Part shown: positions 1 to 64,000 of the stretch, piece by piece
Layout of the letters: each line of letters opens with the position of its first letter
Numbering within the stretch: the first letter of the stretch is position 1
Program-made: the position numbers and the translations under genes
Origin: Microlunatus elymi
GTDB taxonomy: Bacteria; Actinomycetota; Actinomycetes; Propionibacteriales; Propionibacteriaceae
DNA length: 64,000 nt
Reading direction: 5' to 3'
Assembly: GCF_007362775.1 (NCBI RefSeq)
Contig: NZ_CP041692.1
Coordinates: forward strand, 3,534,001 to 3,598,000
Notes under the pieces: generated by a model
Database searches by the model: none
What the model was told of the DNA's origin: nothing
What the model saw: the letters and a program-made list of their open reading frames with translations, nothing else

Positions 1-28
1 CGGGGTAGAGCAGCCCGATGGTGATCAT
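1..28 (-). CDS. Start of a further gene of the left catabolic operon (partial)
   Basis: Only nine codons are inside the window (MITIGLLYP). The ATG overlaps the TGA of the upstream M20 gene in an ATGA arrangement, which is the coupling used elsewhere in this operon. An N-terminus reading IGLLYP resembles the first strand of Asp/Glu racemase and arylmalonate decarboxylase-like proteins, but nine residues cannot settle identity. The gene continues beyond the left edge. Confidence 0.4.
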
Positions 29-1269
29 GAAATGCCCAACGTACGTTGGATGATCAGCGCGTAGCCGCGCGCCGCGGTCAACAGGTCCCGGATCGGCACC
101 GACTCGTCGGCCTGATGCGCCTGTTCGGTCACCGACCCGGGCCCGAACACCACCACGTCCAATCCGGCGTCGCGGGCCAGGAAGCCGCCGTCGCAGGCAG
201 CCGACCAACCGCCGGGCGGCAGCTCGGGCGCTCCGGCAGCGATGCAGGAATCATGAACCACGGTTGCGATCGTGCTGTCGTTCGCCGTCTCGAACCCGGG
301 CATGTCCAAGATCAACTCCGTCTCGATCCGCAGATCGTCGGGCAGGTCCAGGCGGCCGATTCGGCGGCGAAGTTGATCAAGAACCATCGGCCCGGTCTCC
401 GTCGGCAGCAGCCGCCGATCGGCGATCAGCCGGCACTCTGCCGGCACGATCGACGGCCCGGTGCCGCCACTGATCGTCCCCACACTGACCGTGGCCGGAC
501 CGGTCAGCGGATGACCGCTGCCGGCCAACTCTGCATGCCAGCAACGAAGATCGTCGATGATTTCGGCCGCACCGTAGATCGCGTTGGTTCCTTCGTCAGG
601 AGAGCCGGCGTGGGCGGCCCGACCGGTGATCTTGATCTCCAGGTACGCGTCGCCACGGGCAGCGATCACGGTCTGCAGCCCGGTCGGCTCGCCGACCACG
701 CAGCCGGCGAAGCCTCGGCCATGGCCGCTCGTGAGGTAGTGGCGCACCCCCAGCGCGGCATCCTCCTCGTCGATGGTGACCGCCAGCTCCACGGGTCCTC
801 GTAGCGGCACCCCGGCCCGGCGCATCGCACCCAGCGCGACCAGCATCGCGGCCAAGCCGCCTTTCATGTCGGCCGAGCCGCGCCCGTACAGGCGTCCGTC
901 GCGAACGAGGCCACGATGAGGATGCATCGACCAGCCGTCACCGGCCGGAACCACATCGGAATGCCCCAGGAACAGCAATCCTGGACCGTCACCGCCGGCG
1001 AGCCGGGCCCGCAGGTTGGGCCGGCCCGGCCGGACCGGGTCGATCTCGTGATCGAGTCCCCGCTGGTCGCAGGCCCGGGCCAGCACCTCGACGGTTGCCT
1101 GTTCCTGGCCGGGCGGATTCTCCCCCGGAGCCACCACCAGAGCGGCCGCCAGCGACGTGATCTCCTCGGTGCCGATCAAGTCCAGTACTGCGGCCTCCGC
1201 CGCCGTTGCGGCACTCGGCGGCGCGAGGCCCAACGGGCTCACCTCAGGCCCGAGGTGCCGCTCAGGCAT
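25..1269 (-). CDS. M20 family metallopeptidase / deacylase (ArgE/DapE/CPG2-like)
   Basis: A predicted cytosolic zinc hydrolase that removes an acyl or amino-acid group from an N-substituted amino acid. The sequence shows the M20 signatures in order: a metal-binding GHSDVVPAGDGW with His near residue 103, the bridging Asp in GRGSADMKGG near residue 134, the general-base pair in TIDEEDA near residues 168-169, and the dimerisation-domain text GRAAHAGSPDEG. The length (414 aa) is normal for the family. I chose the ATG at 1269, which overlaps the end of the aminotransferase gene by 8 bases; a start 26 codons upstream would lie wholly inside that gene. The exact substrate cannot be read from sequence. 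By position it acts after the M24 hydrolase, like the deacetylase step of ectoine breakdown. Confidence 0.88.
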   Translation of the reverse strand: MPERHLGPEVSPLGLAPPSAATAAEAAVLDLIGTEEITSLAAALVVAPGENPPGQEQATVEVLARACDQRGLDHEIDPVRPGRPNLRARLAGGDGPGLLFLGHSDVVPAGDGWSMHPHRGLVRDGRLYGRGSADMKGGLAAMLVALGAMRRAGVPLRGPVELAVTIDEEDAALGVRHYLTSGHGRGFAGCVVGEPTGLQTVIAARGDAYLEIKITGRAAHAGSPDEGTNAIYGAAEIIDDLRCWHAELAGSGHPLTGPATVSVGTISGGTGPSIVPAECRLIADRRLLPTETGPMVLDQLRRRIGRLDLPDDLRIETELILDMPGFETANDSTIATVVHDSCIAAGAPELPPGGWSAACDGGFLARDAGLDVVVFGPGSVTEQAHQADESVPIRDLLTAARGYALIIQRTLGIS

Positions 1270-2434
1270 CGAGCGCTCGACGCAGCCTGGCCACGCCCTC
1301 GACGATCCGGTCCGGCGGCGTCGAGGCGAAACACAACCGCAGCGCATCCGGGTAGCGGCCGGTCGGCGAGAACGCAGGACCGGGGATGTACGCGACGCCC
1401 TCGGCCAACGCAGCGGCGAACAGCCGCTGGGTGTCGACCCCGGGAATCGTTACCCACAAGAAGAATCCGCCGTCGGGATCGGTCCAGGTCGCCCGCGACC
1501 CGAATTGGTCGGCCAATGCCGTCTGCATGGCCGTCCTGCGTTCGCGATAACGTTCCCGCTGCGTGCGCAGATGTTGATCAAGACCACCTTCGGCCAGGAA
1601 GGCGGCCACCAGCCGCTGTCCCGGCAGATTGGTGCAGGTGTCCATCGCCTGTTTGGCGTTGATGATCAACTGCTGATGCTGCGGAGCGGTGTCCACCCAA
1701 CCCACCCGCAGCCCGGGAGCGATGATCTTGGAGAAGGTGCGCACCGCGAACACCAGCGGATCACCGTCGGACAGGGATCGCAGCGAACCGATGTCGTCAC
1801 CGCCGAACCGGAGCAGACCGTACGGATCGTCGTCGATGATCATCGAACCCCAACGGCGGGCCAACTCGATCAACCGCTGCCGGCGTTCCAGGCTCAGTGT
1901 GGTGCCGGAAGGATTCTGAAAGCTGGGGATGACGTAGATCGCCTTCGGCGCTCGACCGGCCCGGTCGACGACCTCGATCAACTCGTCGATGATCATGCCG
2001 TCGGCATCGACTCCGACCTCGGCCAGCTCGGCGCCGTAGGACAGTGCGGTCGCGCTGCCGTTGGTGTAGGTCGGCGACTCCACGATCACCAGGTCACCCG
2101 GATCGATGAACAGCTTGCCGAAGATGTCCAGGCCCTGCATGCCGCCGGCGGTGATGGTCAGCCGTTCGGGGACGGTCCGATCCGAGGTGCCGTCCAGCAT
2201 CTCCAACAGCGCATCGCGCAGTCCCGGATCACCTTCGGTGGCGGCATAGTCGAAAGCCTCAGCACCCAGCACCTTGGCCGCCAGCGGTTCGAAATCCGGG
2301 ATCGCCTCGGCAGCGGGGCTGCCCATCGCGAACCGGACGATGTCGTGGGATTGCTTCTGCAGCAGCGAGGTCGATGAGTCGATCACCGACCCCAGCAGTT
2401 GGGTTGCCCTCTTTGCCAGCAGGGATTTGCTCAT
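1262..2434 (-). CDS. PLP-dependent class I/II aminotransferase (MocR/2-aminoadipate type, no DNA-binding domain)
   Basis: A 390-aa fold-type I aminotransferase. Visible landmarks are the NPSG motif near residue 174, the DDPYG motif near 202 (Asp/Tyr contacting the pyridine ring), and the Schiff-base lysine in RTFSKIIAPGLRVGW at about residue 236. It lacks the N-terminal winged-helix of MocR regulators, so an enzyme is more likely than a regulator. It starts 4 bases after the M24 gene and overlaps the M20 gene by 8, so the three are co-transcribed. In the proposed pathway it would transfer the amino group of a freed diamino or amino acid, but donor and acceptor are unknown. Confidence 0.88.
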   Translation of the reverse strand: MSKSLLAKRATQLLGSVIDSSTSLLQKQSHDIVRFAMGSPAAEAIPDFEPLAAKVLGAEAFDYAATEGDPGLRDALLEMLDGTSDRTVPERLTITAGGMQGLDIFGKLFIDPGDLVIVESPTYTNGSATALSYGAELAEVGVDADGMIIDELIEVVDRAGRAPKAIYVIPSFQNPSGTTLSLERRQRLIELARRWGSMIIDDDPYGLLRFGGDDIGSLRSLSDGDPLVFAVRTFSKIIAPGLRVGWVDTAPQHQQLIINAKQAMDTCTNLPGQRLVAAFLAEGGLDQHLRTQRERYRERRTAMQTALADQFGSRATWTDPDGGFFLWVTIPGVDTQRLFAAALAEGVAYIPGPAFSPTGRYPDALRLCFASTPPDRIVEGVARLRRALDA

Positions 2435-2438
2435 CTCC

Positions 2439-3623
2439 TCACCGTCCTTTCACTCGCAACACTTGATCAACGTCGGTGAGTCGCTCGGCGCCGGCATCGG
2501 TGACCAAGATCGACTCGCTCAGCTCGTACCCCCAACCGTCGGCCCACATCCCGGCGATCACGTGGAACGCCATCTTGGACCGCAGCTGGGTCTGATCACC
2601 GGTCCGCAGGCTGATCGTTCGCTCGCCCCAGTCCGGCGGGTAGCCGATGCCGATCGAGTAACCCAGCCGCGATTCCTTGATCAACTGGTGCCGGGCCAGC
2701 ACCGCGTCGAAGGCGGCATGCACCTCGTCCGCTGTCACCCCGGGCTTGATCAATTCCAGCACGGCGGCCATCCCGTCGCCGACGACGCCGGCCACCAGGG
2801 ACAGTCGCCGCGGCGGACGGCCGAGCATCACCGTTCGGGCCAGCGGTGCGTGATAACGCCGGGAGACGCCGGTCAACTCGATCGTGGTTACCTCGCCGCC
2901 GACGAACCGATCACCGGTCCAGGTCAGGTGCGGTACGCCGGCCCCGGCACCGGTCGGCAGCAACGGCACGATCGCCGGATAGTCACCACCCTGATCATCG
3001 ACACCGGCGATCTGGGCCGAGGAGATCGCTGCCACCGCGTCGCACTGCCGGACTCCCGGCTCGATCACGTCCAGTGCGGTGGCCATCGCAACCGAACAGA
3101 TCCGGCCGGCGCGACGCAGTTGATCTTGCTCGTAGTCGGACTTGATCACCCGCACCCAGTTGATCAACTCCGCGCTGTCGATCAGCCGGTCCGCGCCGCA
3201 CAGCTCGGCCAGCGCGAGGTAACCCCGTACCGAGAAGAAGTGCGCGTCCGCCTCGACGGCGATCTGGCCGTCGTCGGGCAACAGCCCGATCTCCTTGGCT
3301 CGTTGGCAGATCCATTGATAGGGATGCCGATCAGGTCGGTGCACCAGCTCCTCCGGATAGCCGTGTACGCGTTCGGGACCAAGATCAGCCCCGAAGCGCG
3401 CGCCGGCCGCATCCATGGTGCGGGCGAAGAAGTGCGGATCACCCACAGCGGGCACGATGAGGCATTGCGGCGTGTAGAAACTCCATGCGTCATAGCCGAC
3501 CAGGTAATAGATGTTGGCCGGATCGGCGACCACCAGCGCGGCCAGCGACCGGGTCGCCATCGCCGCCTGCACTCGCTGCACGCGGTCGCGATACTCGGCC
3601 ACCGACGGCATCGCCGCAGTCAT
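2439..3623 (-). CDS. M24-fold hydrolase of the DoeA/EutD (ectoine hydrolase-like) type
   Basis: A pita-bread-fold protein of 394 aa (creatinase N-domain, then M24 domain). The N-domain text NIYYLVGYDAWSFYTPQ is characteristic of the ectoine-hydrolase/creatinase branch. In the M24 domain the usual metal-binding Asp is replaced (IELTGVSRRYHAPLARTV), and the C-terminal block GMWADGWGYELSES also follows the DoeA branch, so a metal-independent C-N ring hydrolase is more likely than an aminopeptidase. The start codon overlaps the stop of the racemase-like gene (ATGA). Known DoeA opens ectoine. EutB/EutC and DoeD are not seen here, so ectoine itself is only one possibility; a related cyclic amidine or hydantoin-like compound would fit as well. 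Confidence 0.75.
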   Translation of the reverse strand: MTAAMPSVAEYRDRVQRVQAAMATRSLAALVVADPANIYYLVGYDAWSFYTPQCLIVPAVGDPHFFARTMDAAGARFGADLGPERVHGYPEELVHRPDRHPYQWICQRAKEIGLLPDDGQIAVEADAHFFSVRGYLALAELCGADRLIDSAELINWVRVIKSDYEQDQLRRAGRICSVAMATALDVIEPGVRQCDAVAAISSAQIAGVDDQGGDYPAIVPLLPTGAGAGVPHLTWTGDRFVGGEVTTIELTGVSRRYHAPLARTVMLGRPPRRLSLVAGVVGDGMAAVLELIKPGVTADEVHAAFDAVLARHQLIKESRLGYSIGIGYPPDWGERTISLRTGDQTQLRSKMAFHVIAGMWADGWGYELSESILVTDAGAERLTDVDQVLRVKGR

Positions 3624-4354: not shown

Positions 4355-4379
4355 GACCACAGTCTGCCCGCGACGGTAG

Positions 4380-4413: not shown

Positions 4414-4419
4414 CTACAT

Positions 4420-7443: not shown

Positions 7444-8445
7444 GTGACCTCCAGCGACGCAATCAGACGGCCGACGATGAAGATGGTCGCCGAGCGCTGC
7501 GGTGTCTCGGTGGCCACGGTGTCGTTCGTGTTGTCCGGCCGACGCAGCGGGCAGGTCGCGGCATCGGCTGCGACGGCCGAGCGGATCCGTACGGTCGCCG
7601 CGGAATTGGGTTATCGGCCCAACCATGCAGCGCGAGCCATCCGGACCGGGCGCTCGGGGCTGGTGTTGCTGTCGCTGACCCAACTGTCCGACCCGTGGTG
7701 CCAGTCGGTCAGTCACGCCGTCAACGAGGCCTCGGCCGATCGGCACCTGCAACCGTTGATCCTGGCCGACGGCGACTGGGGCGAGGTGCTGGACACGCAG
7801 CCGGTGGATGCCGCCTTCCTGGACGCCGGCACCGGTGCCGATCTTGATCGGATTCGCGGCCTGGTGCGCCGCGGGCTGCGCCTGATCGTCTTTTCCGATG
7901 ATCTTGAACCGGACGGGTTCGACGTGATCAGAAGTCCGCAGCAGCCGGGCTGTGGGCTGGCCATGGAGCACCTGCTCGCCGATCACGTCAGGATCGGCTG
8001 TCTGACCGGATCCGATCCGAGTCGGCCCGGTTGGCACCGCGAGGATGCCTACTTCGCTGCCCTGCAAGAGGCAGGGATCAAGCCGGAATCCGATCATTTG
8101 CAGCGATACACCCACGATCTTGCCGGCGTGTACGACGCCGCGTTACGCCTGCTGGATCGGGCCGATCCGCCGACCGCCGTGTTCGCATCCTCCGACTTCG
8201 CGGCGATCACGGTGATCAACGTCGCACTGCGGCTGGGCATGTCGGTGCCCGATGATCTTGCCGTGGTCGGGGTGGGCAACACCGAGGAAGGCACCCAACT
8301 GCATCCCTCGTTGACCTCCGTCGGCCCGACCGAGTTCTTCTCCACTCTCGCCGACTTGATCATCCAGCTGGCGGAGCGTCCCGACGATCATCAGCCCACC
8401 CGACACGACTTTCCCTGGCAGTTGCATCGGCGCGAGTCCAGCTGA
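7444..8445 (+). CDS. LacI family transcriptional regulator
   Basis: A 333-aa repressor. The N-terminal helix-turn-helix MKMVAERCGVSVATVSFVLSGR and hinge GYRPNHAARAIRTGRSGLV are typical LacI, followed by a periplasmic-binding-like sensor domain ending in SVGPTEFFSTLADLI. The GTG start gives 12 residues before the usual MKMVAERCG opening; an internal ATG is possible. It sits 74 bases after the DUF3830 gene with its own -10 box, so it may control the catabolic operon or an unseen target. The effector cannot be deduced. Confidence 0.88.
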   Translation: MTSSDAIRRPTMKMVAERCGVSVATVSFVLSGRRSGQVAASAATAERIRTVAAELGYRPNHAARAIRTGRSGLVLLSLTQLSDPWCQSVSHAVNEASADRHLQPLILADGDWGEVLDTQPVDAAFLDAGTGADLDRIRGLVRRGLRLIVFSDDLEPDGFDVIRSPQQPGCGLAMEHLLADHVRIGCLTGSDPSRPGWHREDAYFAALQEAGIKPESDHLQRYTHDLAGVYDAALRLLDRADPPTAVFASSDFAAITVINVALRLGMSVPDDLAVVGVGNTEEGTQLHPSLTSVGPTEFFSTLADLIIQLAERPDDHQPTRHDFPWQLHRRESS

Positions 8446-8650: not shown

Positions 8651-9967
8651 ATGCCTGCAAAACCCTTGGCTAATGCTGATCTTGAGCGACTGCGCAAAGA
8701 ATTCAGCGCCGATCCGACGGCCAAACTGCTGCAGAACGCGTTGACCACGGCGGAGCTGAAGGACATCGCTCTTGATCATGATGTGGTCGCGGCGACCGAC
8801 ACCACGATGTCGAACCGGCTGGACGACTGGAAGGTCACCAACCAGAAGCGCAGCGGCCGCTGCTGGCTGTTCGCCGGACTGAACCTGCTGCGTGCCGGCA
8901 CCGCCGCCAAGTTCGGCATCAAGGACTTCGAGTTCAGCCAGAACTACGCCATGTTCTTCGACAAGATCGAGCGGGCGAACTACTTCCTGCAGTCGGTGAT
9001 CGAGCTGGCCGACCGGCCGACCGACGACCGTACGTTGGCCACCCTGCTCGAGGACTGCATGGGCGACGGCGGCCAATGGAACATGTTCTCCGCGGTGATC
9101 GCCAAGCACGGTCTGGTGCCCAAGTCGGCGATGCCCGAGACGATCAGCTCCGAGGGCACCAGCCAGATGAACTCCTCGCTGCGCAAGATCCTGCACACCG
9201 CAGCCCGGGACATCCGGGTGGCCGATCAAGATCAACGAGCCGAGCTGGCCGAGACCACGACCAGCGTCGTCTGGCGCGCGTTGTGCATGCATCTGGGTAC
9301 GCCGCCGGAGAAGTTCTTCTGGCAGTGGACCGACAGCGACAAGCAGTTCCATCGCGACGGCTGGCTGACCCCACAGCAGTTCCGTGACAACTACCTGACA
9401 CTCCCGCTGGACGAATACGTCTGCCTGGTTCACGATCCGCGCAACCCGACCGGCAAGACGTACACCGTGGAGCTGCTCGGCAACGTCGTCGACGCACCGC
9501 AGGTCGTCTACCTCAACGTCGACATCGAGACCATGAAGAAGTACGCCGCCGATCAGATCGTCGCCGGTACGCCGGTGTGGTTCGGTTGCGACGTCGGTCA
9601 GCAGATGGATCGCGACCGCGGCATCTGGGACGCCAAGCTGCACGACCTGGAGTCGGTCTACGGCACCGAGTTCAGCCTGGACAAGGCCGCTCGGCTGGAG
9701 TATCACCAGACGCTGATGACGCACGCCATGCTGTTCACCGGAGTTGATCTTGTCGACGGCACGCCGCGGAAGTGGCGGGTGGAGAACTCCTGGGGCGACG
9801 AGCACGCCGATCAGGGCTTCTACACCATGAACGATTCCTGGTTCGACGAGTACGTGTTCGAGATCGCCGCGCCGAAGTCGATCCTGCCGGCCGAGCTGGT
9901 GGCGGCTCTGGACGAGCAGCCGACAGTGCTGCCGGCCTGGGACCCGATGGGTGCCCTCGCCCGCTGA
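8651..9967 (+). CDS. pepC: C1 family cysteine aminopeptidase (PepC / bleomycin hydrolase-like)
   Basis: A cytosolic papain-fold peptidase of 438 aa, the usual length for PepC/bleomycin hydrolase. The active-site cysteine lies in NQKRSGRCWLFAGLN, the catalytic His in MTHAMLFTGVD and the Asn in WRVENSWGDEH. Such enzymes trim N-terminal residues from peptides and form self-compartmentalised hexamers. Start at the ATG preceded by ACGAGGAG at a spacing of about 10 bases. The gene stands alone, with a nested inverted repeat right after the stop. Confidence 0.92.
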   Translation: MPAKPLANADLERLRKEFSADPTAKLLQNALTTAELKDIALDHDVVAATDTTMSNRLDDWKVTNQKRSGRCWLFAGLNLLRAGTAAKFGIKDFEFSQNYAMFFDKIERANYFLQSVIELADRPTDDRTLATLLEDCMGDGGQWNMFSAVIAKHGLVPKSAMPETISSEGTSQMNSSLRKILHTAARDIRVADQDQRAELAETTTSVVWRALCMHLGTPPEKFFWQWTDSDKQFHRDGWLTPQQFRDNYLTLPLDEYVCLVHDPRNPTGKTYTVELLGNVVDAPQVVYLNVDIETMKKYAADQIVAGTPVWFGCDVGQQMDRDRGIWDAKLHDLESVYGTEFSLDKAARLEYHQTLMTHAMLFTGVDLVDGTPRKWRVENSWGDEHADQGFYTMNDSWFDEYVFEIAAPKSILPAELVAALDEQPTVLPAWDPMGALAR

Positions 9968-12630: not shown

Positions 12631-15600
12631 GTGCCCAACCGACAGCAGGGATTCCGCTCCCCAGGATTCGACGCCCTGGCCGGTTTCACGCTGCCCACAC
12701 GGACCTGGTTCGCCGAGGTGTTCGAGGCGCCGACTTCGGCTCAGTCCGGTGCCTGGGAGGCGATCTCGGCAGGCCACAACGCGCTGGTCATCGCACCGAC
12801 CGGATCCGGCAAGACGTTGGCGGCCTTCTTGTGGGCCCTGGACGGGCTCGCGCGGACCGAACCACCGCCGAGCAAGCAGCGCTGCCGGGTGCTCTACGTG
12901 TCTCCGTTGAAGGCGCTGGCCGTCGACGTGGAGCGCAATCTGCGCGCGCCGTTGACCGGTATCGCCCGGACCGCCGAGCGACTCGGCGCCCCGGTGCCGG
13001 ACATCCGGGTCGGCGTCCGCTCCGGCGACACCCCGGCCTCCGACCGCCGCAAGCTGGCCAGCAAACCACCGGACATCATGATCACGACGCCGGAGTCGTT
13101 GTTCCTGATGCTCACCTCCGGCGCTCGGGACATCTTGCGCCAGGTCGAGACCGTGATCGTCGACGAGGTGCATGCGCTGGCCGGCACCAAGCGCGGCGCC
13201 CATCTGGCGATCAGCCTCGAACGGTTGGAGGAGCTGATCGGCCGGACCGCCGAGGACGCCGGAGCTGATCATCGGCCGGTGCAGCGGATCGGACTGTCTG
13301 CGACGGTTCGACCGCCGGAACGGGTCGCCGCCTTCCTCGGCGGCCGGCATCCGGTCCAGGTGGTGGCGCCGCCCGCGGAGAAGAACTGGGATCTGCAGAT
13401 CGTCGTCCCGGTCGAGGACATGGCCGAGGTCGGAGCCGCGCCGCCGCGGCCGATCTCCGAGCAGGTCGGTACGGCCGAAGTGCTCGGATCGCCCGCGGCA
13501 CCCGACCCGAAGGGTGCGGCTCCCGACGACCTCGATCCGTACGATCTCGTTGCCCCGCCGCCCAGCGGCCCGCCGTCGATCTGGCCCCACGTCGAGACCC
13601 GGATCCTGGATCTGATCCTGGACAACCGATCCAGCATCGTGTTCGCGAATTCGCGCCGGCTGGCCGAGCGGCTGACCGCTCACCTGAACGAGTTGTACGC
13701 CGAGCGACTCGGGGTCGAGGTGCCCGACAGTGTCAGACCGCCGGCCCAGGTGATGGCCCAGTCCGGTGCCTCCAAGGGGCAGGACGGCTCCGGTGACGGC
13801 GGGGCCCCGGTGATCGCCAAGGCGCATCACGGATCGGTCAGCAAGGAGCAGCGGGCGATCGTCGAGGACGACCTGAAGTCCGGCCGGCTGCGTTGTGTGG
13901 TGGCGACCTCGTCGTTGGAGTTGGGCATCGACATGGGCGCGGTCGACATCGTGATCCAGGTGGAATCACCGCCGTCCGTTGCGAGCGGGCTGCAGCGGGT
14001 CGGCCGGGCCGGCCATCAGGTCGGCGCGATCTCCCGCGGCGTCTTCTTCCCCGATCATCGCGGCGACTTGATCGAGTCGACGGTGGTGGCGACCCGGATG
14101 CGGGACGGACAGATCGAGGAGGTCGCCCGGCTGCACAACCCGTTGGACGTGCTGGCCCAGCAGATCGTGGCGATCGTTTCCGATCAGGACATCGATGCCG
14201 ATCGGCTTTTCGATCTTGTTCGGCGAGCCGACGGCTACGCCGAGCTGCCCCGCAGCGCGTACGAGGCCGTGCTCGACATGCTCAGCGGCCGCTATCCCAG
14301 CGAGGATTTCGCCGAGTTGCGACCGCGGCTGATCTGGCATCGCGACACCAATCAGTTGCAGGCCCGTCCCGGCGCACAACGCCTGGTGGTGACCTCCGGC
14401 GGCACCATCCCTGATCGTGGTTTGTTCGGCGTCTTCCTGGTCGGTGAGGGTGCCGGTCGTCGCGTCGGCGAGCTGGACGAGGAGATGGTGTACGAGTCCC
14501 GGGTCGGTGACGTGATCACGCTCGGCACCACCAGCTGGCGGATCGAGGCGATCACCCACGATCAGGTGCAGGTCTCCCCTGCTCCCGGCGTGCCCGGCCG
14601 GCTGCCGTTCTGGAAGGGTGATGCACCGGCCCGACCCGCCGAGCTGGGCCGGGCGCTGGGTGGATTCGTCCGCGAGATCGCGGCGCAACCGACCTCCGAA
14701 TCCAAGCCCCGCTTGCTGTCTGCCGGTCTGGACGAGTGGGCCGCGGACAATCTGCTCGGTTACGTCCATGATCAACAATCGGCCACCCGAGGACTGCCGA
14801 CCGACCGGGAAGTGATCTTCGAACGGTTCCGCGACGAACTCGGCGACTGGCGGGTTTGCGTGCACACCCCGCTCGGTTCGGCGGTGCACGCACCGTGGGC
14901 GTTGGCGATCGAGGCGGCGGCCCGGGAGCGGTACGGCGTCGACGCGTCGGCGACCGCGACCAACGACGGCATCGTGCTGCGGATCCCGGACACCGAGAGC
15001 GAACCACCGGGTGCGGAGTTGATCATCAGTGACCCGGACACGTTGGAGCAGATCGTCACCGACGAGGTCGGCGGATCGGCCTTGTTCGCTTCGCGATTCC
15101 GGGAGTGCGCGGCCAGGGCGTTGCTGCTGCCCCGCCGAGATCCGCGATCCCGATCACCGTTGTGGCAGCAACGGATGCGTTCGGCCCAACTGCTCGGCGT
15201 CGCCACCCGCTACCCCGAGTTTCCGATCGTGCTGGAGACGATGCGGGAGTGCCTGACCGACGTCTTCGATCTTGAATCGCTGCTCGACGTGCAGCGCCGG
15301 ATCGCGGCGAGACAGATCAAGATCGTCGAGGTGGAGACCAAGGAGCCGTCGCCGTTCGCCAGGACGCTGCTCTTCGGCTACGTCGGTGAGTTCGTCTACG
15401 AGGGCGACGTGCCGCTGGCGGAGAAGAAGGCGGCCGCACTGTCCCTGGACGCCGGGCTGCTGGCCGAGTTGCTCGGCAAGGACGGGCTGCAACAGCTGCT
15501 CGATGCCGAGGTGATCACCGAGGTCGAGGCAGATCTTCAGTCGTTGAGCATCCAGCGGCGAGCTGGCCGGCCGGAGCAACTGTTCGACCTGATCCGAACC

Positions 15601-17505
15601 GCCGGCCCGTTCGATCACAGCGAGCTGGCCGCCCGGGTGACCGCCGAGTTTGATCTTGACACCGAGCTGGCGGGGTTGATCAACCAACGCCGCGTGGTCG
15701 AGGTCCGGATCGCCGGTGATCAGCGGTATGCGGTGATCGAGGACCTGCCCCGATTGCGGGACGGATTGGGCATCCCCTTGCCGCCCGGCACGGCCGCCGA
15801 TGTCGGCTCGTCCGGTGATCAGCCGGTCACCGACCTGGTGCTGCGGTGGGCTCGGACCCACGGCCCGTTCCTGGCCCAGACCGTCGCCGACCGCTACGGC
15901 CTCGGCGTCGGCGTGATCAGCTCGGCGCTGCAGGATCTGATCAAGGACGGCACGGTGGTTACCGGCACCTTCACCGCCCCAGCCGCGCCGGAGCACGGCG
16001 AAGAACCGAAACCCGACCCCGACGGTCCTGCCCATGACGGCGGACCGAAACCCGGCCACGCCCGTCAGTACTGTCACCAGCGCAATCTGGCGCTGATCAA
16101 ACGCCGTACGTTGGCCAAGCTCCGCCAGGGTATCGAGCCGGTCGATCAGGTCGCCTACCAGCGGTTTCTGCTCGACTGGCAGGGGATCGGCTCCGGCGTA
16201 CGAGGTCCGGAGGCAGTGTTGTCGGTGCTGGAGCAGCTGGCCGGTTATCCGCTGCCGGCCAGCGCGATCGAATCGGTGATCCTGCCGGCGCGGGTTGCCG
16301 ACTATCAACCGGCGATGCTGGACGAGCTGACGTCGTCGGGTGAGTTGCTGTGGATCGGCGACGGTGCGATCGGTGACGCCGACGGTTGGGTTCGGTTCTA
16401 TCCGCAGGACGCCGACCTGCCCGATCCGGGCCAGCAGGTTCCGGGGCCGCTGGCGGCCGAGCTGATGGAACGGCTCGAGTCCGGCGGCGGATTCTTCTTC
16501 GACAACCTGCTCGGCGCTGATCTCGAGCCGGGTCGGCGCGGCGACTACGTGCAGGCGCTGTGGGATCTGGTCTGGTCCGGGCACATCACCGGCGACACCT
16601 TCGCACCGGTCCGGGCGCTGACCACCGACGGCACGATGAAGCGACCGGCGACCCCTCGGGCCAGGCTGCCTCAGAACCGATTGAGGGGCCGGGGCATGCG
16701 ACCCCGATTCGGACCCGGCAGTGGACTGTCCCGACGGCCGCCACGCCCTGGTTTCGTGGCTTCCTCGCCGACCACAGCCGGACGGTGGTCTGCGGTGCCG
16801 CGGATCGGCGACGTCGATCAACGGGCACGCTTTGCCGGCCAGTTGTTCGCCGAGCTGGACCGCTACGGCGTGCTGACCCGGGGCAGCGTGCTGAACGAGG
16901 AGGCCGAGGGTGGGTTCGGGGCGGCCTATCGCGGGTTGAGCACGCTGGAGGAGTCGGGGCAGTGTCGCCGTGGCTACTACATCGACGGGCTGGGCGCCGC
17001 CCAGTTCGCCGTCCCCGGCGCGATCGACCGACTGCGTGATCATCAGCGCGAACTTGATCTTGAACACCCGCGGGCGGTCGTCCTGGCGGCGACCGATCCC
17101 GCCAACGCGTACGGCGCTGCCCTGCCGTGGCCACGTAGAGCCGCGCTCCGCGCGGACATGCCGGGCAGAGCCGCACCGGGCATCGACGGGTCCGAACGGG
17201 AGGGACACCGTCCCGGCCGAAAGGCCGGTGCCCTGGTGGTGCTGGTCGACGGACTGCTCGCGCTGTATGTCGAGCGGGGTGGCCGGACCCTGCTCACCTT
17301 CACCGAGGCGGATCAGCTGCTGCGGCCTGCGACCGCTGCCCTGGCCGCCGCGGTGCTGGCCGGCCACCTCGGCCGGGTGACCATCGAACGGGCGAACGGT
17401 GACCAGATCTTCACCGCAGGCCGGTTGAGCGAGTTGTTGCAGGAAGCCGGCTTCCGGATGACGCCACAGGGTCTGAGGCTCCGACCGGATCCGTCCCGAT
17501 CGTGA
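12631..17505 (+). CDS. lhr: ATP-dependent helicase Lhr (large helicase-related protein)
   Basis: A 1,624-aa superfamily-2 helicase. Walker A is APTGSGKTLAAF near residue 54 and the DEVH box is VIVDEVHAL near residue 174. Motif III-like LSATVRPPE and the C-terminal RecA-domain motif VGRAGHQVG follow, then the winged-helix and large C-terminal Lhr core domains. It unwinds DNA or RNA:DNA hybrids and in mycobacteria belongs to a mitomycin-induced DNA-repair regulon. Length is at the upper end for the family because of low-complexity inserts near residues 267-317 (Pro-rich), 1120-1147, 1337-1387 (Arg/Pro-rich) and 1499-1537. GTG start supported by FTLPTRTWFAEVFEAPTSAQ, the usual family opening, shortly after. 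Confidence 0.95.
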   Translation: MPNRQQGFRSPGFDALAGFTLPTRTWFAEVFEAPTSAQSGAWEAISAGHNALVIAPTGSGKTLAAFLWALDGLARTEPPPSKQRCRVLYVSPLKALAVDVERNLRAPLTGIARTAERLGAPVPDIRVGVRSGDTPASDRRKLASKPPDIMITTPESLFLMLTSGARDILRQVETVIVDEVHALAGTKRGAHLAISLERLEELIGRTAEDAGADHRPVQRIGLSATVRPPERVAAFLGGRHPVQVVAPPAEKNWDLQIVVPVEDMAEVGAAPPRPISEQVGTAEVLGSPAAPDPKGAAPDDLDPYDLVAPPPSGPPSIWPHVETRILDLILDNRSSIVFANSRRLAERLTAHLNELYAERLGVEVPDSVRPPAQVMAQSGASKGQDGSGDGGAPVIAKAHHGSVSKEQRAIVEDDLKSGRLRCVVATSSLELGIDMGAVDIVIQVESPPSVASGLQRVGRAGHQVGAISRGVFFPDHRGDLIESTVVATRMRDGQIEEVARLHNPLDVLAQQIVAIVSDQDIDADRLFDLVRRADGYAELPRSAYEAVLDMLSGRYPSEDFAELRPRLIWHRDTNQLQARPGAQRLVVTSGGTIPDRGLFGVFLVGEGAGRRVGELDEEMVYESRVGDVITLGTTSWRIEAITHDQVQVSPAPGVPGRLPFWKGDAPARPAELGRALGGFVREIAAQPTSESKPRLLSAGLDEWAADNLLGYVHDQQSATRGLPTDREVIFERFRDELGDWRVCVHTPLGSAVHAPWALAIEAAARERYGVDASATATNDGIVLRIPDTESEPPGAELIISDPDTLEQIVTDEVGGSALFASRFRECAARALLLPRRDPRSRSPLWQQRMRSAQLLGVATRYPEFPIVLETMRECLTDVFDLESLLDVQRRIAARQIKIVEVETKEPSPFARTLLFGYVGEFVYEGDVPLAEKKAAALSLDAGLLAELLGKDGLQQLLDAEVITEVEADLQSLSIQRRAGRPEQLFDLIRTAGPFDHSELAARVTAEFDLDTELAGLINQRRVVEVRIAGDQRYAVIEDLPRLRDGLGIPLPPGTAADVGSSGDQPVTDLVLRWARTHGPFLAQTVADRYGLGVGVISSALQDLIKDGTVVTGTFTAPAAPEHGEEPKPDPDGPAHDGGPKPGHARQYCHQRNLALIKRRTLAKLRQGIEPVDQVAYQRFLLDWQGIGSGVRGPEAVLSVLEQLAGYPLPASAIESVILPARVADYQPAMLDELTSSGELLWIGDGAIGDADGWVRFYPQDADLPDPGQQVPGPLAAELMERLESGGGFFFDNLLGADLEPGRRGDYVQALWDLVWSGHITGDTFAPVRALTTDGTMKRPATPRARLPQNRLRGRGMRPRFGPGSGLSRRPPRPGFVASSPTTAGRWSAVPRIGDVDQRARFAGQLFAELDRYGVLTRGSVLNEEAEGGFGAAYRGLSTLEESGQCRRGYYIDGLGAAQFAVPGAIDRLRDHQRELDLEHPRAVVLAATDPANAYGAALPWPRRAALRADMPGRAAPGIDGSEREGHRPGRKAGALVVLVDGLLALYVERGGRTLLTFTEADQLLRPATAALAAAVLAGHLGRVTIERANGDQIFTAGRLSELLQEAGFRMTPQGLRLRPDPSRS

Positions 17506-24845: not shown

Positions 24846-27503
24846 TCAGCCGGTGCGCAGGTTCTCCACCACGGCTTCAAGATCATCCGGTTTGACCAGG
24901 ACGTCGCGCGGTTTGGATCCCTCCGACGGTCCGACGATGCCCCGGGTCTCCAGGATGTCCATCAACCGGCCGGCCTTGGCGAAACCGACGCGCAGCTTGC
25001 GTTGCAGCATCGAGGTGGATCCGAGTTGCAGGTTCACCACCAGCTCAACCGCCTGCAACACCAGATCAAGATCATCACCGATGTCCTCGGCGACCTTCTT
25101 GGCCGCCGGGGCCTGGATGATGTCGTCGCGGTACTGCGGTTTGAGCTGCTCGGTGACGTGCTTGACCACCTTGCGGATCTCGGACTCGTCCACCCAGGCG
25201 CCTTGGATCCGGATCGGCTTGCCGGCCCCCATCGGCAGGAACAAACTGTCGCCCTGGCCGACCAGTTTCTCCGCACCCGGGGAGTCCAGGATCACCCGGG
25301 AGTCCGTCATCGACGAGGTCGCCAGCGCGAGCCGGCTGGGCACGTTGGCCTTGATCAGGCCGGTGACCACGTCGGTGCTGGGACGCTGGGTGGCGAGCAC
25401 CAGGTGGATGCCCGCGGCCCGGGCCAGCTGAGTGATGCGGACGATCGAGTCCTCCACGTCGCGCGGGGCGACCATCATCAGGTCGGCGAGCTCGTCGACG
25501 ATCACCAGCAGGTACGGGTACGGCTCGAGCTTGCGTTCCGAGCCCTCCGGCGGAGTGACCGCGCCGGCCCGGACCGCCTTGTTGAAGTCGTTCACGTGCC
25601 GGAAGCCGAAGTGGGCCAGGTCGTCGTAACGCATGTCCATCTCGCGGACGACCCACTGCAACGCCTCGGCCGCCTTCTTCGCCGAGGTGATGATCGGCGT
25701 CACCAGATGCGGGATGCCTTCGTAGATGGTCAGCTCGACCCGTTTCGGATCGACCAACATCATCCGCACCTCGTCCGGGGTGGCCCGCATCAGGATCGAG
25801 GTGATCAGCGAGTTGATGAAACCGGACTTACCGGCGCCGGTGGCACCGGCGATCAGCAGGTGCGGCATCTTGGACATGTTGGCGACCACGAAGCCGCCCT
25901 CCACGTCCTTGCCCATCCCGACCGTCATCGGATGATGATCATTACGGGCAGCCGGCGAGCGGAGCACGTCACCGAGGGAGACGATTTCCTTGTCGGTGTT
26001 GGGGATCTCGATGCCGATCGCGGACTTGCCGGGGATCGGCGACAGGATCCTGACCTCATTGCTGGCCACCGCGTAGGAGATGTTCTTGTTCAAGGCGGTG
26101 ACCTTCTCCACCTTGACCGCAGGACCGAGCTCGACCTCGTACCGGGTCACCGTCGGGCCGCGGCTGTAGCCGGTCACCCGGGCGTCGATGTTGAACTGCT
26201 CCAGCACACCGGTGAGCCGGCCGACGACCGCGTCGGAGGCCTCGGTGCGAGCCCGCGGAACCGTACCCTGCTTGAGATCTGCGGAGTCGGGCAGCAGGTA
26301 CTGCACGTCGCCGGACAACTGCAACTGCTCCACCCGCTGCGGTGGCGGCGTGTGCTGCGGCGGTTCGAGTTCGGCCTCTTCCTCGTCCTCGCCGCGGACG
26401 TGGAAACCCGGCGGCAGGCCGGCCGTCACCGGCCCCTTCGGGCGGTCGTCGGCCGGCGCGTCCGGCGTGTCGAGCGGCTCGGCGAAGCCGGTGTCGGAAC
26501 CGATCTCCTCGACCAGGTCGATCGAGTCACCGATCTCCTCCGGCGACTGCTCCTCCCCTGCGGCCCTGTCCTTCTTCTTCCGCCGGCTCTTGGGCTTGCC
26601 GTCGGTGATCATCGGGGTGTCGTAGGCCTGATCGGCGCCGTACTCGAGCTCCTCGACGACCTCGCCGTCGATCACCCGATTCGGGGTCAGCCGGTCGCGC
26701 AGGGCGGCGAACCGGCCGGGCATCTCGTGCAACGGGATGCCGACGATGACCAGGATCCCGAAGATCAACAACAGCACCAGCAGCGGCGCGGCGACCCAGT
26801 TGGTCTTCAGCAGGTCGTGCAGCAGCGAGGACGAGATGAAGCCGAGTACGCCGCCGGCCTCCCGCAGGGCCTGTGGGTCGTTGGGCCGCGGCAGACCGTT
26901 GGCGAGATTGATCAGTCCCAGCAGGCCGAGCAACGCGGCGCTCCAGCCGATGAACTGACGGCCGGCCGGCCCGTTGTGGTCCGGATGCCGCAGCGTCCGC
27001 CAGGCCATGCCGGCCAGCAGGATCGGTGAGGCGTAGGCCAGGGTGCCGATCACGCTGGTCACGCCGACCTGGATCCAGTGCCCGACCGGATCCGGCAGCC
27101 CCCACCAGAACTGGGCCGCGACGACGATCGCCAACCCGATCAGCAGCAGACCGACGCCGTCCCGGCGTAGCGCCGGATCGATGTCGTCCGGGCCGGGTTG
27201 ACCGTGGTGATGGCCCACCTTGCGTGCCCCTCCCCCGACCGCGTGCGCGACGCCCATCCAGGCGCCACGCAGTCCGCGCCCGACCACCGCGCCGGCCGAC
27301 GGCCCCTGCGGCTTCGGCTTGCGCGCGGGCGGTTTTCGGGCCGGCTGCTTGCGGCCGCGCGTCGAGACCGCCTTGCCGCCATTGCTGGCCGGCTTGCGGT
27401 TGGTGGACTTCTTACTTCCGGGCGAACGCGAAGTCGACCCGCCCCGCGAACTCGCGGAGCTGGAGGTACGAGTCCGCGCTGGGGAAGACGCGCGGGTCGC
27501 CAT
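24846..27503 (-). CDS. ftsK: DNA translocase FtsK
   Basis: An 885-aa septal DNA pump. It begins with a basic Ser/Lys/Arg/Pro-rich tail (about 75 residues), then about four membrane helices (from [19 protein letters not shown] to [17 protein letters not shown]), an acidic/Pro linker, and the RecA-type motor with Walker [16 protein letters not shown]. The C-terminal gamma winged-helix is [29 protein letters not shown], which reads KOPS-type signals. The ATG is preceded by TACGTT at 7 bases (leaderless). In related actinobacteria ftsK is beside pgsA-cinA-clgR; here three genes intervene. Confidence 0.95.
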
Positions 27504-60397: not shown

Positions 60398-60428
60398 ATC
60401 CAGCAAGGCGTATCCCGCGACCGCAGTT

Positions 60429-60469: not shown

Positions 60470-60499
60470 GATGATCTTCAGTTGTCAGTCGAGCAATGA

Positions 60500-61183
60500 T
60501 CAACGAGCGGCGCGCTTGGCCGTCGTCTTCTTGGCCGGAGCCTTCCTGGCAGCGGTCTTGGTGGCCGGTGCCTTCTTGGCGGCGGTCGTCCTCTTGGCCG
60601 CGGTCTTGGTGGCCGTTGCCCGTGCCGGTGCCTTCTTGGCCACGGTCTTGGTCGCAGGCGCCTTCTTGGCGGCCGTCTTGGTGGCGGCAGCGCGGGTGGC
60701 CGGCGCCTTCTTGGCGGTGGTCCTCTTGGCCGGGGCCTTCTTCGCCGCGGTGGTAGTGGCTGCAGCCTTCTTGGCCGTGGTCTTCTTGGCCGTGGTCTTC
60801 TTGGCCGGGGCCTTCTTCGCCGCGGTCGTGGTCGCCGCCGCCTTGGTCGGGGCCGCGGTGGTGGTCTTGGCGACGGCCTTCTTCGCCGTTGCCCGCGGCG
60901 GCTTCTTCTCGCCGGACACGTAGGCCTTCAATTCCGAACCTGCACGGAATTTCGGCACTGCCGTTGCCTTGGCACGCTTGCGCTCTCCGGTCCGCGGGTT
61001 GCGCACCATCCGGGCCGGACGCTTGATCTTCTCGAAGACGCCGAAGCCGGTGATCGACACCTTCTCGCCGCGGGCCGTCGTGTAAGTGATCGTGTCGACG
61101 ACCGCGTTCAGTGCTTTGGCCGCTTGGGCCTTGCTGCCGTCGAACTCGACGGCGAGCGCCTCGATTAACTCAGCCTTGTTCAC
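60500..61183 (-). CDS. hupB: HU-family histone-like protein with Lys/Ala-rich tail (HupB type)
   Basis: 227 aa. Residues 1-90 are a standard HU domain (MNKAELIEALAVEFDGSKAQAAKALNAVVDTI, ISITGFGVFEKIKRPARMVRNPRTGERKRAKATAVPKFRAGSELK). The rest is a long repetitive tail of PAKKTTAKK / APATKTAAKKA units like mycobacterial HupB and eukaryotic H1. It compacts DNA and binds non-specifically through the tail. The tail is encoded by many similar short repeats, so length variation between strains is likely. GTG start with GAAGGGAAG upstream. Confidence 0.94.
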   Translation of the reverse strand: MNKAELIEALAVEFDGSKAQAAKALNAVVDTITYTTARGEKVSITGFGVFEKIKRPARMVRNPRTGERKRAKATAVPKFRAGSELKAYVSGEKKPPRATAKKAVAKTTTAAPTKAAATTTAAKKAPAKKTTAKKTTAKKAAATTTAAKKAPAKRTTAKKAPATRAAATKTAAKKAPATKTVAKKAPARATATKTAAKRTTAAKKAPATKTAARKAPAKKTTAKRAAR

Positions 61184-61264
61184 AGCTTCCCTTCTTCGAA
61201 CGCCAAAATCAGCGCCGCACCTTGCGACTACGTGCTAACGCTAGGGAAACCGAGCACCTGAAAC

Positions 61265-61334
61265 AAACACCGCAAGCCCCGAAACGCCGTGTCGTAAGGA
61301 AATTCGGCGATTTTCGGGGCTTGCGAGGGTGTTT
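61265..61334. repeat. Inverted repeat after leuD
   Basis: Arms AAACACC+GCAAGCCCCGAAA (61265-61284) and TTTCGGGGCTTGC+GGTGTTT (61312-61334, with a 3-base bulge) around a 27-base loop. Lies 8 bases past the leuD stop, upstream of hupB; terminator of the leuCD operon. Confidence 0.7.
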
Positions 61335-61342
61335 TCGGCCGA

Positions 61343-61951
61343 TCAGGCGGTGGTTTGCGCCGCCACGGTGGTCGGTTGGAAACCCAGCCGATTCGCTTCG
61401 TACGCGGTGATCTCGGCCTCCTTGCGCAGGGTCAAGCCGATGTTGTCGAGGCCTTCCAGCAGCCGCCAGCGGGTGTAGTCGTCGATCGTGAAGGCTGTGC
61501 TGAAGCCGTCGCTGGCCTGGATCGTCCGGGTCTGCAGATCGACCGTGATCTCTGTCTCCGGGTGGTTCTCGACGATCTTCCACAACTGTTCGACGTCCTC
61601 GTGGGACACCTTGGCCAGCAACAAACCCGCGTTGCCGGAGTTGTTGGAGAAGATGTCACCGAAGCGGGATCCGATGACGACCTTGAACCCGTAGTCCTGC
61701 AAGGCCCAGACCGCGTGCTCCCGCGACGATCCGGTGCCGAAGTCCGGACCGGTGATCAAGATCGTGGCGCTGCGATACGGCGGCTGGTTCAGGACGAACT
61801 CGGGATCCTTGCGCCAGGCGGCGAACAGTCCGTCCTCGAAGCCGGTCCGGGTGACCCGCTTGAGGTAGACCGCCGGGATGATCTGATCGGTGTCGACATT
61901 GCTGCGACGCAACGGCAGCCCGGTGCCGGTGTGACTGGTGAACTTTTCCAT
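61343..61951 (-). CDS. leuD: 3-isopropylmalate dehydratase small subunit
   Basis: A 202-aa swivel-domain subunit of isopropylmalate isomerase in leucine synthesis: [79 protein letters not shown] at 61951 has AAGGAG 8 bases upstream; an ATG two codons before it is too close to the ribosome site. Follows leuC by 35 bases. Confidence 0.95.
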
Positions 61952-61986
61952 GATCATGACTCCTTGTGGCCAGTGAGGTGTCGCGG

Positions 61987-63387
61987 TCAGCGCTGCAGGT
62001 CTGCGGGTGCGGTCAGCTTGCCGGTCACCGCGGTGGCCGCGGCGACGACCGGCGAGACCAGATGGGTCCGGCCGCCCTTGCCTTGCCGGCCTTCGAAATT
62101 CCGGTTGGAGGTGGACGCACTGCGCTCGCCCGGCGCCAGCTTGTCCGGGTTCATCGCCAGACACATCGAGCATCCGGCGCCGCGCCATTCGGCACCGGCC
62201 TCCTTGAAGATCACGTCCAGGCCCTCGGACTCGGCCTGCAGCCGAACCCGAGCCGATCCGGGAACAACCAGCATCCGTACCGAATCGGCGACGGTGTGAC
62301 CCTTGATCACCTCGGCGGCGGCGCGCAGGTCCTCGATCCGGCCGTTGGTGCAGGAACCCAGGAAGATCGTGTCCACCGCGATCTCCTTCATCGGCGTACC
62401 GGCCTTCAGATCCATGTACTCCAAGGCTTTCTGGGCCGCGACCCGGGAGGTCTCGTCATGGAAGGTCTCCGGATCCGGCACCGACGCCGACAGCGGTACG
62501 CCCTGGCCGGGGTTGGTGCCCCAGGTCACGAACGGCGACAACTCGGCGGCGTCCAGGTCGATCTCCAGATCGAAGCGGGCGTCGTCGTCGGTCCGCAACG
62601 ACTTCCAGTAGTCGACGGCGGCATCCCAGTCCGCGCCCTGCGGCGCATGCGGCCGGCCCTTCAAGTACTCGAAGGTGGTCTCGTCCGGCGCGATCATGCC
62701 CGCCTTGGCACCCCATTCGATGCTCATGTTGCAGATCGTCATCCGCCCTTCCATGGAAAGGCTTTCGATCACCGAGCCGCGGTATTCGGCGATGTAGCCC
62801 TGGCCGCCGCCGGTGCCAACCTTGGCGATCAGCGCCAGCACGATGTCCTTGGCGGTTACGCCGGCCGGCAGTTCGCCGTTGACGTTGACGGCCAACGTCT
62901 TCGGCTTGCGCTGCGGCAGCGTCTGGGTGGCCAGCACGTGCTCGACCTCGGAGGTGCCGATGCCGAAAGCCAACGCACCGAAAGCCCCGTGGGTCGAGGT
63001 GTGCGAGTCACCACAGACCACGGTCATCCCCGGCTGGGTCAGGCCCAGCTGCGGACCGATGATGTGCACGATGCCCTGATCAAGATCACCCAGCTGGTAG
63101 ATCGGCACGCCGAATTCCTTGGCGTTCTTCCGCAGGGTCTCCACCTGGGTCCGGGAGACCGGGTCGGCGATCGGCTTGTCCACGTCGAGGGTCGGGATGT
63201 TGTGATCCTCGGTGGCCAGGGTCAGATCCGGACGCCGCACCTGTCGGCCCGCCTGACGAAGACCGTCGAAGGCCTGCGGGCTGGTCACCTCGTGCACCAG
63301 GTGCAGGTCGATGTAGAGCAGCTGATTGTTCTCGTCGGCGTCCACGACGTGGGCGTCCCACACCTTCTCACTCAGCGTCTTACCCAT
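61987..63387 (-). CDS. leuC: 3-isopropylmalate dehydratase large subunit
   Basis: A 466-aa aconitase-family subunit holding the [4Fe-4S] cluster: cysteines in [13 protein letters not shown] and [11 protein letters not shown]. Other marks: [36 protein letters not shown] and [31 protein letters not shown] at 63387 has GGGAGAG about 9 bases upstream and gives the family start [13 protein letters not shown]. Divergent from an IclR gene, a layout known for NdgR/LtbR-type control of leuCD in actinobacteria. Confidence 0.96.
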
Positions 63388-63477
63388 CCGAAGCGCTCTC
63401 CCTGTCACGTCGACGCAGTCGCGCCGACTGATTGATGATCTTGATCTGAGTTATTCGCCGATGTTCGCCGCCAGAAC

Positions 63478-63506
63478 TTGCATTCCAGCATTCGAGACGG
63501 CAATAT
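63478..63506 (+). promoter_or_regulatory. Promoter TTGCAT-17-CAATAT of the IclR gene (leaderless)
   Basis: -35 TTGCAT, a 17-base spacer and -10 CAATAT, 6 bases before the ATG. A direct repeat GCATTC-ca-GCATTC overlaps the -35 and could be part of a regulator site in the leuC-IclR intergenic region. Confidence 0.5.
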
Positions 63507-63512
63507 CAAGCC

Positions 63513-64000
63513 ATGGACAACTCTAGCGGTGTCGGCGTTCTGGACAAAGCGGCTCTCGTGCTGGGCGCACTGGAGACCGGGCCGACCACCCTGGCCGGAC
63601 TGGTCTCTGCGACCGGTCTGGCCCGCCCGACGGCCCATCGGCTGGCCGTCGCACTGGAACATCATCGGCTGGTCAGCCGTGACCTGCAGGGCCGGTTCGT
63701 GCTCGGCCCGCGGCTCGGTGAGCTGGCCTCGGCCGCCGGTGAGGACCGGCTGCTCGCCACCGCCGGACCGGTGCTGGCCCGGCTGCGCGACATCACCGGC
63801 GAATCGGCTCAACTCTTCCGCCGACAAGGCGATTTCCGGATCTGTGTCGCGGCCGCGGAGCGTCAGTCCGGGCTGCGGGACACCGTCCCGATCGGGTCCC
63901 AGTTGACCATGACCGCCGGCTCGGCGGCCCAGATCCTGCTGGCCTGGGAGGATCCGGAGCGGATGCAGCGCGGGCTGCGTGGGTCGCGCTACACCGCGGT
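63513..64000 (+). CDS. IclR family transcriptional regulator (NdgR/LtbR-like, partial)
   Basis: The first about 162 residues are present; the gene runs off the window. The N-terminal winged helix reads VLDKAALVLGALETGPTTLAGLVSATGLARPTAHRLAVALEHHRLV, followed by the IclR effector domain (LRDITGESAQLFRRQGDFRICVAAAERQSGLRDTVPIGSQLTMTAGSAAQILLAWEDPER). This and the divergent position to leuCD match NdgR/LtbR, which controls leucine genes in Streptomyces and Corynebacterium. Regulation of leuCD is inferred. Confidence 0.88.
   Translation, partial: MDNSSGVGVLDKAALVLGALETGPTTLAGLVSATGLARPTAHRLAVALEHHRLVSRDLQGRFVLGPRLGELASAAGEDRLLATAGPVLARLRDITGESAQLFRRQGDFRICVAAAERQSGLRDTVPIGSQLTMTAGSAAQILLAWEDPERMQRGLRGSRYTA

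What the first reader, a model, noticed from the sequence alone, without database searches (positions are those of the whole stretch)
1..64000. Extreme over-representation of TTGATCA(A) and GATCTTG words across all genes
Scanning by eye I count about 70 copies of TTGATCA or TGATCAA (many as the full palindrome TTGATCAA). A window of this size and about 67% GC predicts about 2 for the 7-mer on both strands. The relative GATCTTG also recurs (e.g. 7841, 7893, 8116, 8256, 9744, 14212, 15268, 15652, 17055, 53452, 60085). Copies occur in genes of either strand and in intergenic DNA. They force TTG for Leu before ATC and CTT for Leu after GAT, codons that are otherwise rare here, so amino-acid content does not explain them. 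The word is nearly palindromic, which fits a dimeric binding protein, a methylation target or an uptake/recognition word better than a directional signal such as KOPS. A pronounced codon-pair bias is the null explanation.
Basis: partly seen in the sequence, partly recalled or inferred. Interest (0 to 1): 0.78.

Follow-up and report, generated by a model that had tools for sequence, protein, structure and literature searches.

The report
Genome-wide TGATCA palindrome in an actinobacterium
This actinobacterium carries the symmetric DNA word TGATCA (best form TTGATCAA) thousands of times, far more often than its proteins and codon habits require, inside and between genes, and the DNA-methylating enzyme types usually invoked to explain such words were not found in its genome.

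Summary
The window has 78 sites with TTGATCA or TGATCAA (zero-order expectation 1.8), 22 TTGATCAA and 147 TGATCA; none of 500 synonymous and none of 500 synonymous-plus-dinucleotide shuffles reaches the counts. It is genome-wide: 785 TTGATCAA, 8,681 TGATCA. It is DNA-level: raised in both frames it can occupy (xTG|ATC|Axx 1789/1324, xxT|GAT|CAx 705/112) and the top hexamer between genes. It is lineage-bound: 6 of 20 genomes of the genus (probably Microlunatus) have at least 14 per 10 kb, and own ranks first of 295 class genomes for TTGATCAA. It resembles cyanobacterial HIP1, but the parts of that model were not found: own genome has no match to PF02086, PF01555 or PF00145 and three to PF02384 (one read: type I HsdM), and MutS_I matches 0 of 20 genus genomes. 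Orthologues show faster gain and slower loss than comparison contexts, so a fixation-like bias keeps it. I favour sequence-biased repair around GATC over selection for a binding protein; the two are not separated.

The parts
1..64000 (.). 147 TGATCA sites spread over the window, inside called genes and between them; 78 of them extended to TTGATCA and/or TGATCAA
373..380 (.). first of 22 TTGATCAA octamers; starts at 373, 1574, 2463, 2677, 2746, 3160, 4684, 5065, 5356, 15676, 21936, 28496, 28964, 39734, 39980, 40561, 53183, 53196, 53232, 56995, 57035, 57170
8116..8122 (+). example of the asymmetric relative GATCTTG (58 copies on both strands in the window); further exact examples at 14212, 15268, 15652
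12631..17505 (+). Lhr-type helicase gene, used to place the organism and for the tree; not part of any mechanism

Best explanation
TGATCA, best as TTGATCAA and with weaker relatives such as TTGATCTT, is an iterated palindromic word of HIP type, at one site per 590 bp, kept by a bias that acts on DNA and not on protein or translation. SHOWN: excess in two frames with different codons and between genes; restriction to part of one genus and a few relatives in its family among the genomes examined; orthologue comparison in which the word is gained faster and lost more slowly than comparison contexts. INFERRED: the agent is a GATC-reading step in DNA repair or conversion that, without MutS and without the type II methyltransferases searched for, resolves mismatches towards T just before GATC (and A just after it), so that sites accumulate as a by-product rather than because each is needed.
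For: Dinucleotide-preserving synonymous shuffle: xxT|GAT|CAx 705 against 112, xTG|ATC|Axx 1789 against 1324. Octamer TTGATCAA 258 against 53, highest of the NNGATCNN octamers with expectation 15 or more. 218 kb between called genes: 239 TGATCA, top hexamer, 3.15 times an order-2, 2.14 times an order-3 and 1.52 times a maximal-order model. Same frame excess in G011 (157/33) and G006 (128/25). Orthologue pairs: loss of T-GAT-CA 0.57 (95% 0.39-0.83) against 2.06 (1.37-3.81) for T-GAT-G; gain 0.267 (0.190-0.380) against 0.037 (0.024-0.064). No gradient from the contig start (r 0.07), over-dispersed gaps (CV 1.23), flat along genes: no sign of a placed function. MutS_I in 0 of 20 genus genomes, NucS in 20 of 20. 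The fifth of genes closest to the preferred codons has the fewest sites (12.4 against 18.8-21.2 per 10 kb in the other four), as if translation opposed the word.
Against: No repair enzyme with this sequence preference is known to me; the passages seen of one NucS paper (PMC11109965) hold no neighbour-context data. Selection for binding predicts the same gain and loss pattern. The Leu TTG|ATC test points the same way but its intervals overlap (loss 0.41-1.49 before A, 0.86-3.22 before G). The three pair sets share sequences. T-GAT-CT is also gained fast and lost slowly (0.140, 0.68), so the effect is not exclusive to the palindrome. A second palindrome, CGTACG, is also raised in all three frames, which one GATC-reading agent does not explain. 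NucS is present in low-density members too, so its presence alone is not the cause.
Confidence: 0.42

Rival explanations
1. Selection for a DNA-binding protein: an abundant, probably dimeric chromosome protein reads WTGATCAW, and weak selection at thousands of sites keeps the genome dense in targets (nucleoid organisation, segregation or self-recognition).
For: Palindromic optimum with graded half-sites; two TT halves together exceed the product of their single effects (4.89 against 3.42). Slow loss plus fast gain. Lineage-bound presence.
Against: No placement: no regular spacing, gradient or bias along genes. My estimate from the gain/loss ratios is a scaled strength of about 1.3 to 3.3 per site, hard to sustain by selection at 8,681 sites. 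No candidate protein was found; gene content was not compared systematically.
Confidence: 0.3
2. HIP1-like methylation: an orphan methyltransferase marks GATC or TGATCA and methyl-directed repair ratchets the word up, as Elhai proposed for cyanobacteria.
For: GATC core; TGATCA is also the hexamer with the highest ratio in many group C1 cyanobacteria (PMC4390886, passages, section 3.4 part 1).
Against: Own genome: 0 matches to PF02086, PF01555 and PF00145; 3 to PF02384, of which the one read is a type I HsdM by Pfam beside a gene with Methylase_S domains. None of the four families matches in all six high-density genomes. MutS_I in 0 of 20. Other methyltransferase families were not searched.
Confidence: 0.1
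3. Codon-pair or codon-context bias of translation.
For: Next-codon effects on wobble choice are strong in this genome in general, and the most significant raw words lie in genes.
Against: Different codons in different frames give the same DNA word; TGATCA is also the top hexamer between genes; CTT is 28% of Leu after GAT but 4% after GAC, the same amino acid; genes closest to the preferred codons have the fewest sites.
Confidence: 0.06
4. Pure mutational context: mutation towards T beside GATC is simply more frequent, with no bias in repair or fixation.
For: Would affect all DNA; no function needed.
Against: Would raise gain without slowing loss; loss of T-GAT-CA is 3.6 times slower than of T-GAT-G. 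Needs two coordinated rate changes.
Confidence: 0.12

Closest known systems
HIP1, GCGATCGC, of cyanobacteria (Elhai 2015, PMC4390886; abstract, passages and section 3.4 part 1 seen)
   Same: Highly iterated palindrome with a GATC core, genome-wide, variable between lineages; density about one per kb there, one per 590 bp here
   Different: TGATCA core with A/T-leaning flanks instead of GC-rich flanks; an actinobacterium; the type II methyltransferase families searched and MutS were not found
TGATCA of group C1 picocyanobacteria (same paper, passages)
   Same: Same hexamer as the most over-represented one
   Different: Listed there as a weak oligomer; other phylum; no frame, intergenic or gain/loss test in the passages seen
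DNA uptake sequences (recalled)
   Same: Many copies of a short word
   Different: No near-invariant long consensus and no bias along genes
KOPS and Chi (recalled)
   Same: Short words over-represented genome-wide
   Different: Those are directional; this is palindromic, and no gradient along the chromosome was seen

Membership tests
HIP-type iterated palindrome | palindromic word far above model expectation, genome-wide | tested here: met
HIP-type iterated palindrome | raised independent of reading frame and between genes | tested here: met
   1.35-fold and 6.3-fold in the two frames that allow TGATCA (the third would contain the stop codon TGA), 3.15-fold at order 2 between genes
HIP1 proper | sequence GCGATCGC | tested here: not met
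   CGATCG only 2620/2130 in coding and 0.69 at order 2 between genes; GCGATCGC is not among the 25 most over-represented palindromic octamers; it was not counted by itself
HIP1 proper | cognate GATC or CGATCG methyltransferase in the genome | tested here: not met
   0 matches to PF02086, PF01555, PF00145 in own genome; an unsearched or unknown family is not excluded
Elhai ratchet (methyl-directed mismatch repair) | MutS-type mismatch repair | tested here: not met
   PF01624 in 0 of 20 genus genomes, 11 of 14 controls
DNA uptake sequence | long near-invariant consensus | tested here: not met
   base before TGATCA is A 0.30, T 0.29, G 0.27, C 0.14; but some 10-mers are strongly raised, e.g. GTTGATCTTG 321 against 33 at order 4, not codon-controlled
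DNA uptake sequence | clustering at gene ends | tested here: inconclusive
   deciles within genes are flat (225-303 each); the DNA just downstream of genes was not tested apart
KOPS-like directional signal | strand orientation and ori-ter gradient | tested here: not met
   palindrome; r = 0.07 with distance from the contig start over 82 bins, assuming that the start is near the origin
Methylation target | base modification at the word | not testable with these tools
   needs long-read kinetics

The most novel reading that the evidence does not exclude
A HIP without type II methyltransferase and without MutS: the non-canonical mismatch repair of actinobacteria, or an unknown GATC-reading factor, drives a palindromic word through whole genomes like biased gene conversion. 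Such words would then not need methylation, and one genus with high- and low-density species would be a natural contrast in which to find the factor.
Probability: 0.4. Interest if true: 0.8.

Novelty: new variant of a known kind. Interest (0 to 1): 0.62.

Why it matters
Why genomes fill up with highly iterated palindromes is an old open question, tied so far to orphan methyltransferases and methyl-directed repair in cyanobacteria. Here the same kind of word occurs where those parts were not found, in some species of one genus and not in others, with a measurable gain and loss bias. That makes both models directly testable by modification calling, mutation accumulation and pulldown.

Tried and rejected
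Codon-pair null: rejected. Methylation: three type II families have no match in own genome; weak PF01555/PF02384 matches in G011 and G012 have UPF0020 (RlmKL-like) as best Pfam match, all NCBIfam matches being below cut-off; the weak matches in G006 and G008 were not read. Gradient, regular spacing and bias along genes: none. Atypical genes lacking the word: not seen, the least typical fifth has 20.1 per 10 kb. TTGATCAA as the unit: raw flank coupling around TGATCA is small (TTGATCAA 276 against 248), but with codons controlled the octamer exceeds the product of its halves (4.89 against 3.42).

Results that cut against a tidy story: TGATCA ranks first by z under the dinucleotide shuffle and fifth under the within-gene shuffle, eighth by Poisson z in another run. 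G008 is high genome-wide (18.5 per 10 kb) but the 34.6 kb of it that I held shows 7.8 and no clear frame excess (11/8.0). In the low group the frame count is 3 against 0.5, so a weak effect is not excluded there. The nine comparison pools of other actinobacteria (66 of the 80 loci) have expectations of only 0-7 in the T|GAT|CA frame, so power is low.

The first tree used wrong-strand frames and was discarded; (FastTree) replaces it. One search crashed on an N and was rerun. Literature, listings only unless said: TTGATCAA (20 of 37 listed), TGATCA with other terms (20 of 30 listed, one paper), Microlunatus with GATC, actinobacteria with GATC and codon context, Propionibacteriaceae with palindrom and overrepresent (none): no title or abstract start seen reports this word in Actinobacteria.

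Full report
OBSERVATION. The window holds 147 TGATCA, 78 distinct sites with TTGATCA or TGATCAA, 22 TTGATCAA and 58 GATCTTG/CAAGATC. Zero-order expectations are 1.77 for the two heptamers together, 0.15 for the octamer and 3.6 for GATCTTG. By a maximal-order Markov model TGATCA has the highest z of the window's hexamers (294 against 207, strands summed). Of 500 synonymous within-gene shuffles and 500 synonymous shuffles that also keep dinucleotides, none reached the observed count for any of the seven words tested in the 60 genes wholly in the window.

WHERE IT COMES FROM. The window is bases 3,534,001-3,598,000 of a single 5,121,194-base contig. The Lhr helicase of the window matches actinobacteria at up to 57% in the best segment among the 80 loci kept. 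Two relatives have the same sizes and counts as the genomes of named loci, Kribbella sp. ALI-6-A (G048 and G059) and Actinopolymorpha rutila (G053 and G060), and are given as other families of the same order; so the order is Propionibacteriales (recalled taxonomy). G019 of the same genus is 5,683,123 bases long, which from memory is the size of Microlunatus phosphovorus NM-1. Genus Microlunatus, family Propionibacteriaceae, is thus an inference, not a tool result.

GENOME-WIDE AND LINEAGE-BOUND. Own genome: 785 TTGATCAA and 8,681 TGATCA, 17.0 per 10 kb. From the counts (sizes there partly rounded), 6 of 20 genus genomes have at least 14 per 10 kb (G000, G004, G006, G008, G011, G012), 2 about 10 (G001, G015) and 12 under 7; 13 genomes of other genera of the family range from 0.15 to 11.7, and 24 of other families of the order from 1.25 to 4.1. 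In 295 genomes drawn evenly from the class, own has the highest TTGATCAA count (785, next 191) and the highest per Mb (153, next about 123, a 1.2 Mb genome); one other genus member was in that draw (G018, 7 copies). In 80 named actinobacterial loci TGATCA is 0.4-6.5 per 10 kb. In a FastTree of Lhr from eight genus members G000, G011, G012 and G006 form a clade (support 100) whose neighbour G009 is low, while G008 falls outside it.

IT IS A DNA WORD. I called 1,466 genes with a home-made caller on 1.658 Mb of own genome. Under a synonymous shuffle that keeps protein, codon usage and dinucleotides, TGATCA is 2,494 against 1,436, the highest z of the hexamers (fifth under the plain within-gene shuffle): 1,789 against 1,324 in frame xTG|ATC|Axx and 705 against 112 in frame xxT|GAT|CAx; the third frame would hold a stop codon. 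The two frames use unrelated codons. In 218 kb outside called genes TGATCA is again the top hexamer by an order-2 model (ratio 3.15; order-3 2.14; maximal order 1.52). Among strand-symmetrised octamers NNGATCNN the best is TTGATCAA (258 against 53), then ATGATCAA (459/136) and AAGATCAA, that is TTGATCTT (479/176). The GATCTTG words are thus asymmetric relatives of the same family. Summing the NGATCN table by frame, GATC itself is raised over the within-gene shuffle in each frame (744/343, 14,696/10,250, 5,626/2,966). G011 and G006, 400 kb each, repeat the T|GAT|CA excess (157/33, 128/25); nine pools of other actinobacteria (66 of the 80 loci) do not (largest 6/4 and 4/7), though with small expectations. 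Small samples of the genus and family: G004 15/2.4, G012 11/1.8, G015 9/4.0, G009 3/0.8, G023 3/0.0, G002 1/0.0, G019 2/3.0, G016 0/0.5, G008 11/8.0, low group 3/0.5.

GAIN AND LOSS. Codon alignments of 122, 155 and 92 reciprocal best pairs among own, G011 and G006 were scored at sites with conserved amino acids. For T|GAT|CA (260 site pairs, 51 with the word in both, 64 in one) the share is 0.32, gain 0.267 (0.190-0.380) and loss 0.57 (0.39-0.83). T|GAT|CT: 0.17, 0.140, 0.68. T|GAT|C with C or G next: 0.058, 0.076, 1.24. T|GAT|G: 0.018, 0.037 (0.024-0.064), 2.06 (1.37-3.81). A single wobble T elsewhere is lost at 1.8-2.3 (first version). TTG before ATC-A against ATC-G points the same way (loss 0.72 against 1.42) with overlapping intervals. 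The pair sets share sequences, so intervals are too narrow. Faster gain plus slower loss is what selection or biased repair gives, not a one-way mutation bias.

LOOKING FOR THE AGENT. In own genome PF02086, PF01555 and PF00145 give 0 matches; PF02384 gives 3, of which the one read is a type I HsdM by Pfam beside a gene with Methylase_S domains. Across the six high-density genomes PF01555 is over cut-off in 1, PF02086 in 1, PF00145 in 4 and PF02384 in 5 (weak matches included; those read in G011 and G012 are best matched by UPF0020). MutS_I matches 0 of 20 and NucS_C 20 of 20 genus genomes. Sites show no gradient with distance from the contig start (r 0.07, 82 bins), variance-to-mean 2.6 per 20 kb, gap CV 1.23 and a flat profile along genes.

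READING. Elhai (PMC4390886; abstract and passages, section 3.4 part 1) ties cyanobacterial HIP1 to methyltransferases and proposes a methyl-directed repair ratchet; the passages also give TGATCA as the hexamer with the highest ratio in many group C1 cyanobacteria. The word here is the same kind of thing, but the parts of that model were not found. I commit to biased repair or conversion around GATC as the most likely agent, with selection for a binding protein close behind. Neither has direct evidence.

Noticed in passing
window (48 sites) and own genome sample: A second palindrome, CGTACG, is raised in all three frames (199/35, 706/557, 331/136) and between genes (2.57 at order 2, but 0.94 at maximal order); also raised in the Streptomyces/Kitasatospora pool (24/5, 67/41, 44/18), not in every frame of G011 (22/5, 91/124, 37/20).
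   Followed up: partly
G032 (other genus of the family): TGATCA is nearly absent: 34 copies in 2.3 Mb, 1 TTGATCAA; could be avoidance of a restriction enzyme of BclI type (recalled).
   Followed up: no
G000:C1:500940, 1025632, 4198547: Own genome has three PF02384 (N6_Mtase) matches; the first is a type I HsdM by Pfam, the other two were not read.
   Followed up: partly
own genome, G011, G006 alignments: Strong general next-codon effects on wobble choice: GAT is 0.6-4% of Asp codons before AA, AC, AT or GG, but 39-62% before C.
   Followed up: partly
window 24846-27287 (-): FtsK/SpoIIIE-type translocase gene by Pfam; no link to the word shown.
   Followed up: no
G008:C1:1-20000 and three short G008 loci: The 34.6 kb held have 7.8 TGATCA per 10 kb against 18.5 genome-wide, so density in that genome seems uneven.
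   Followed up: no
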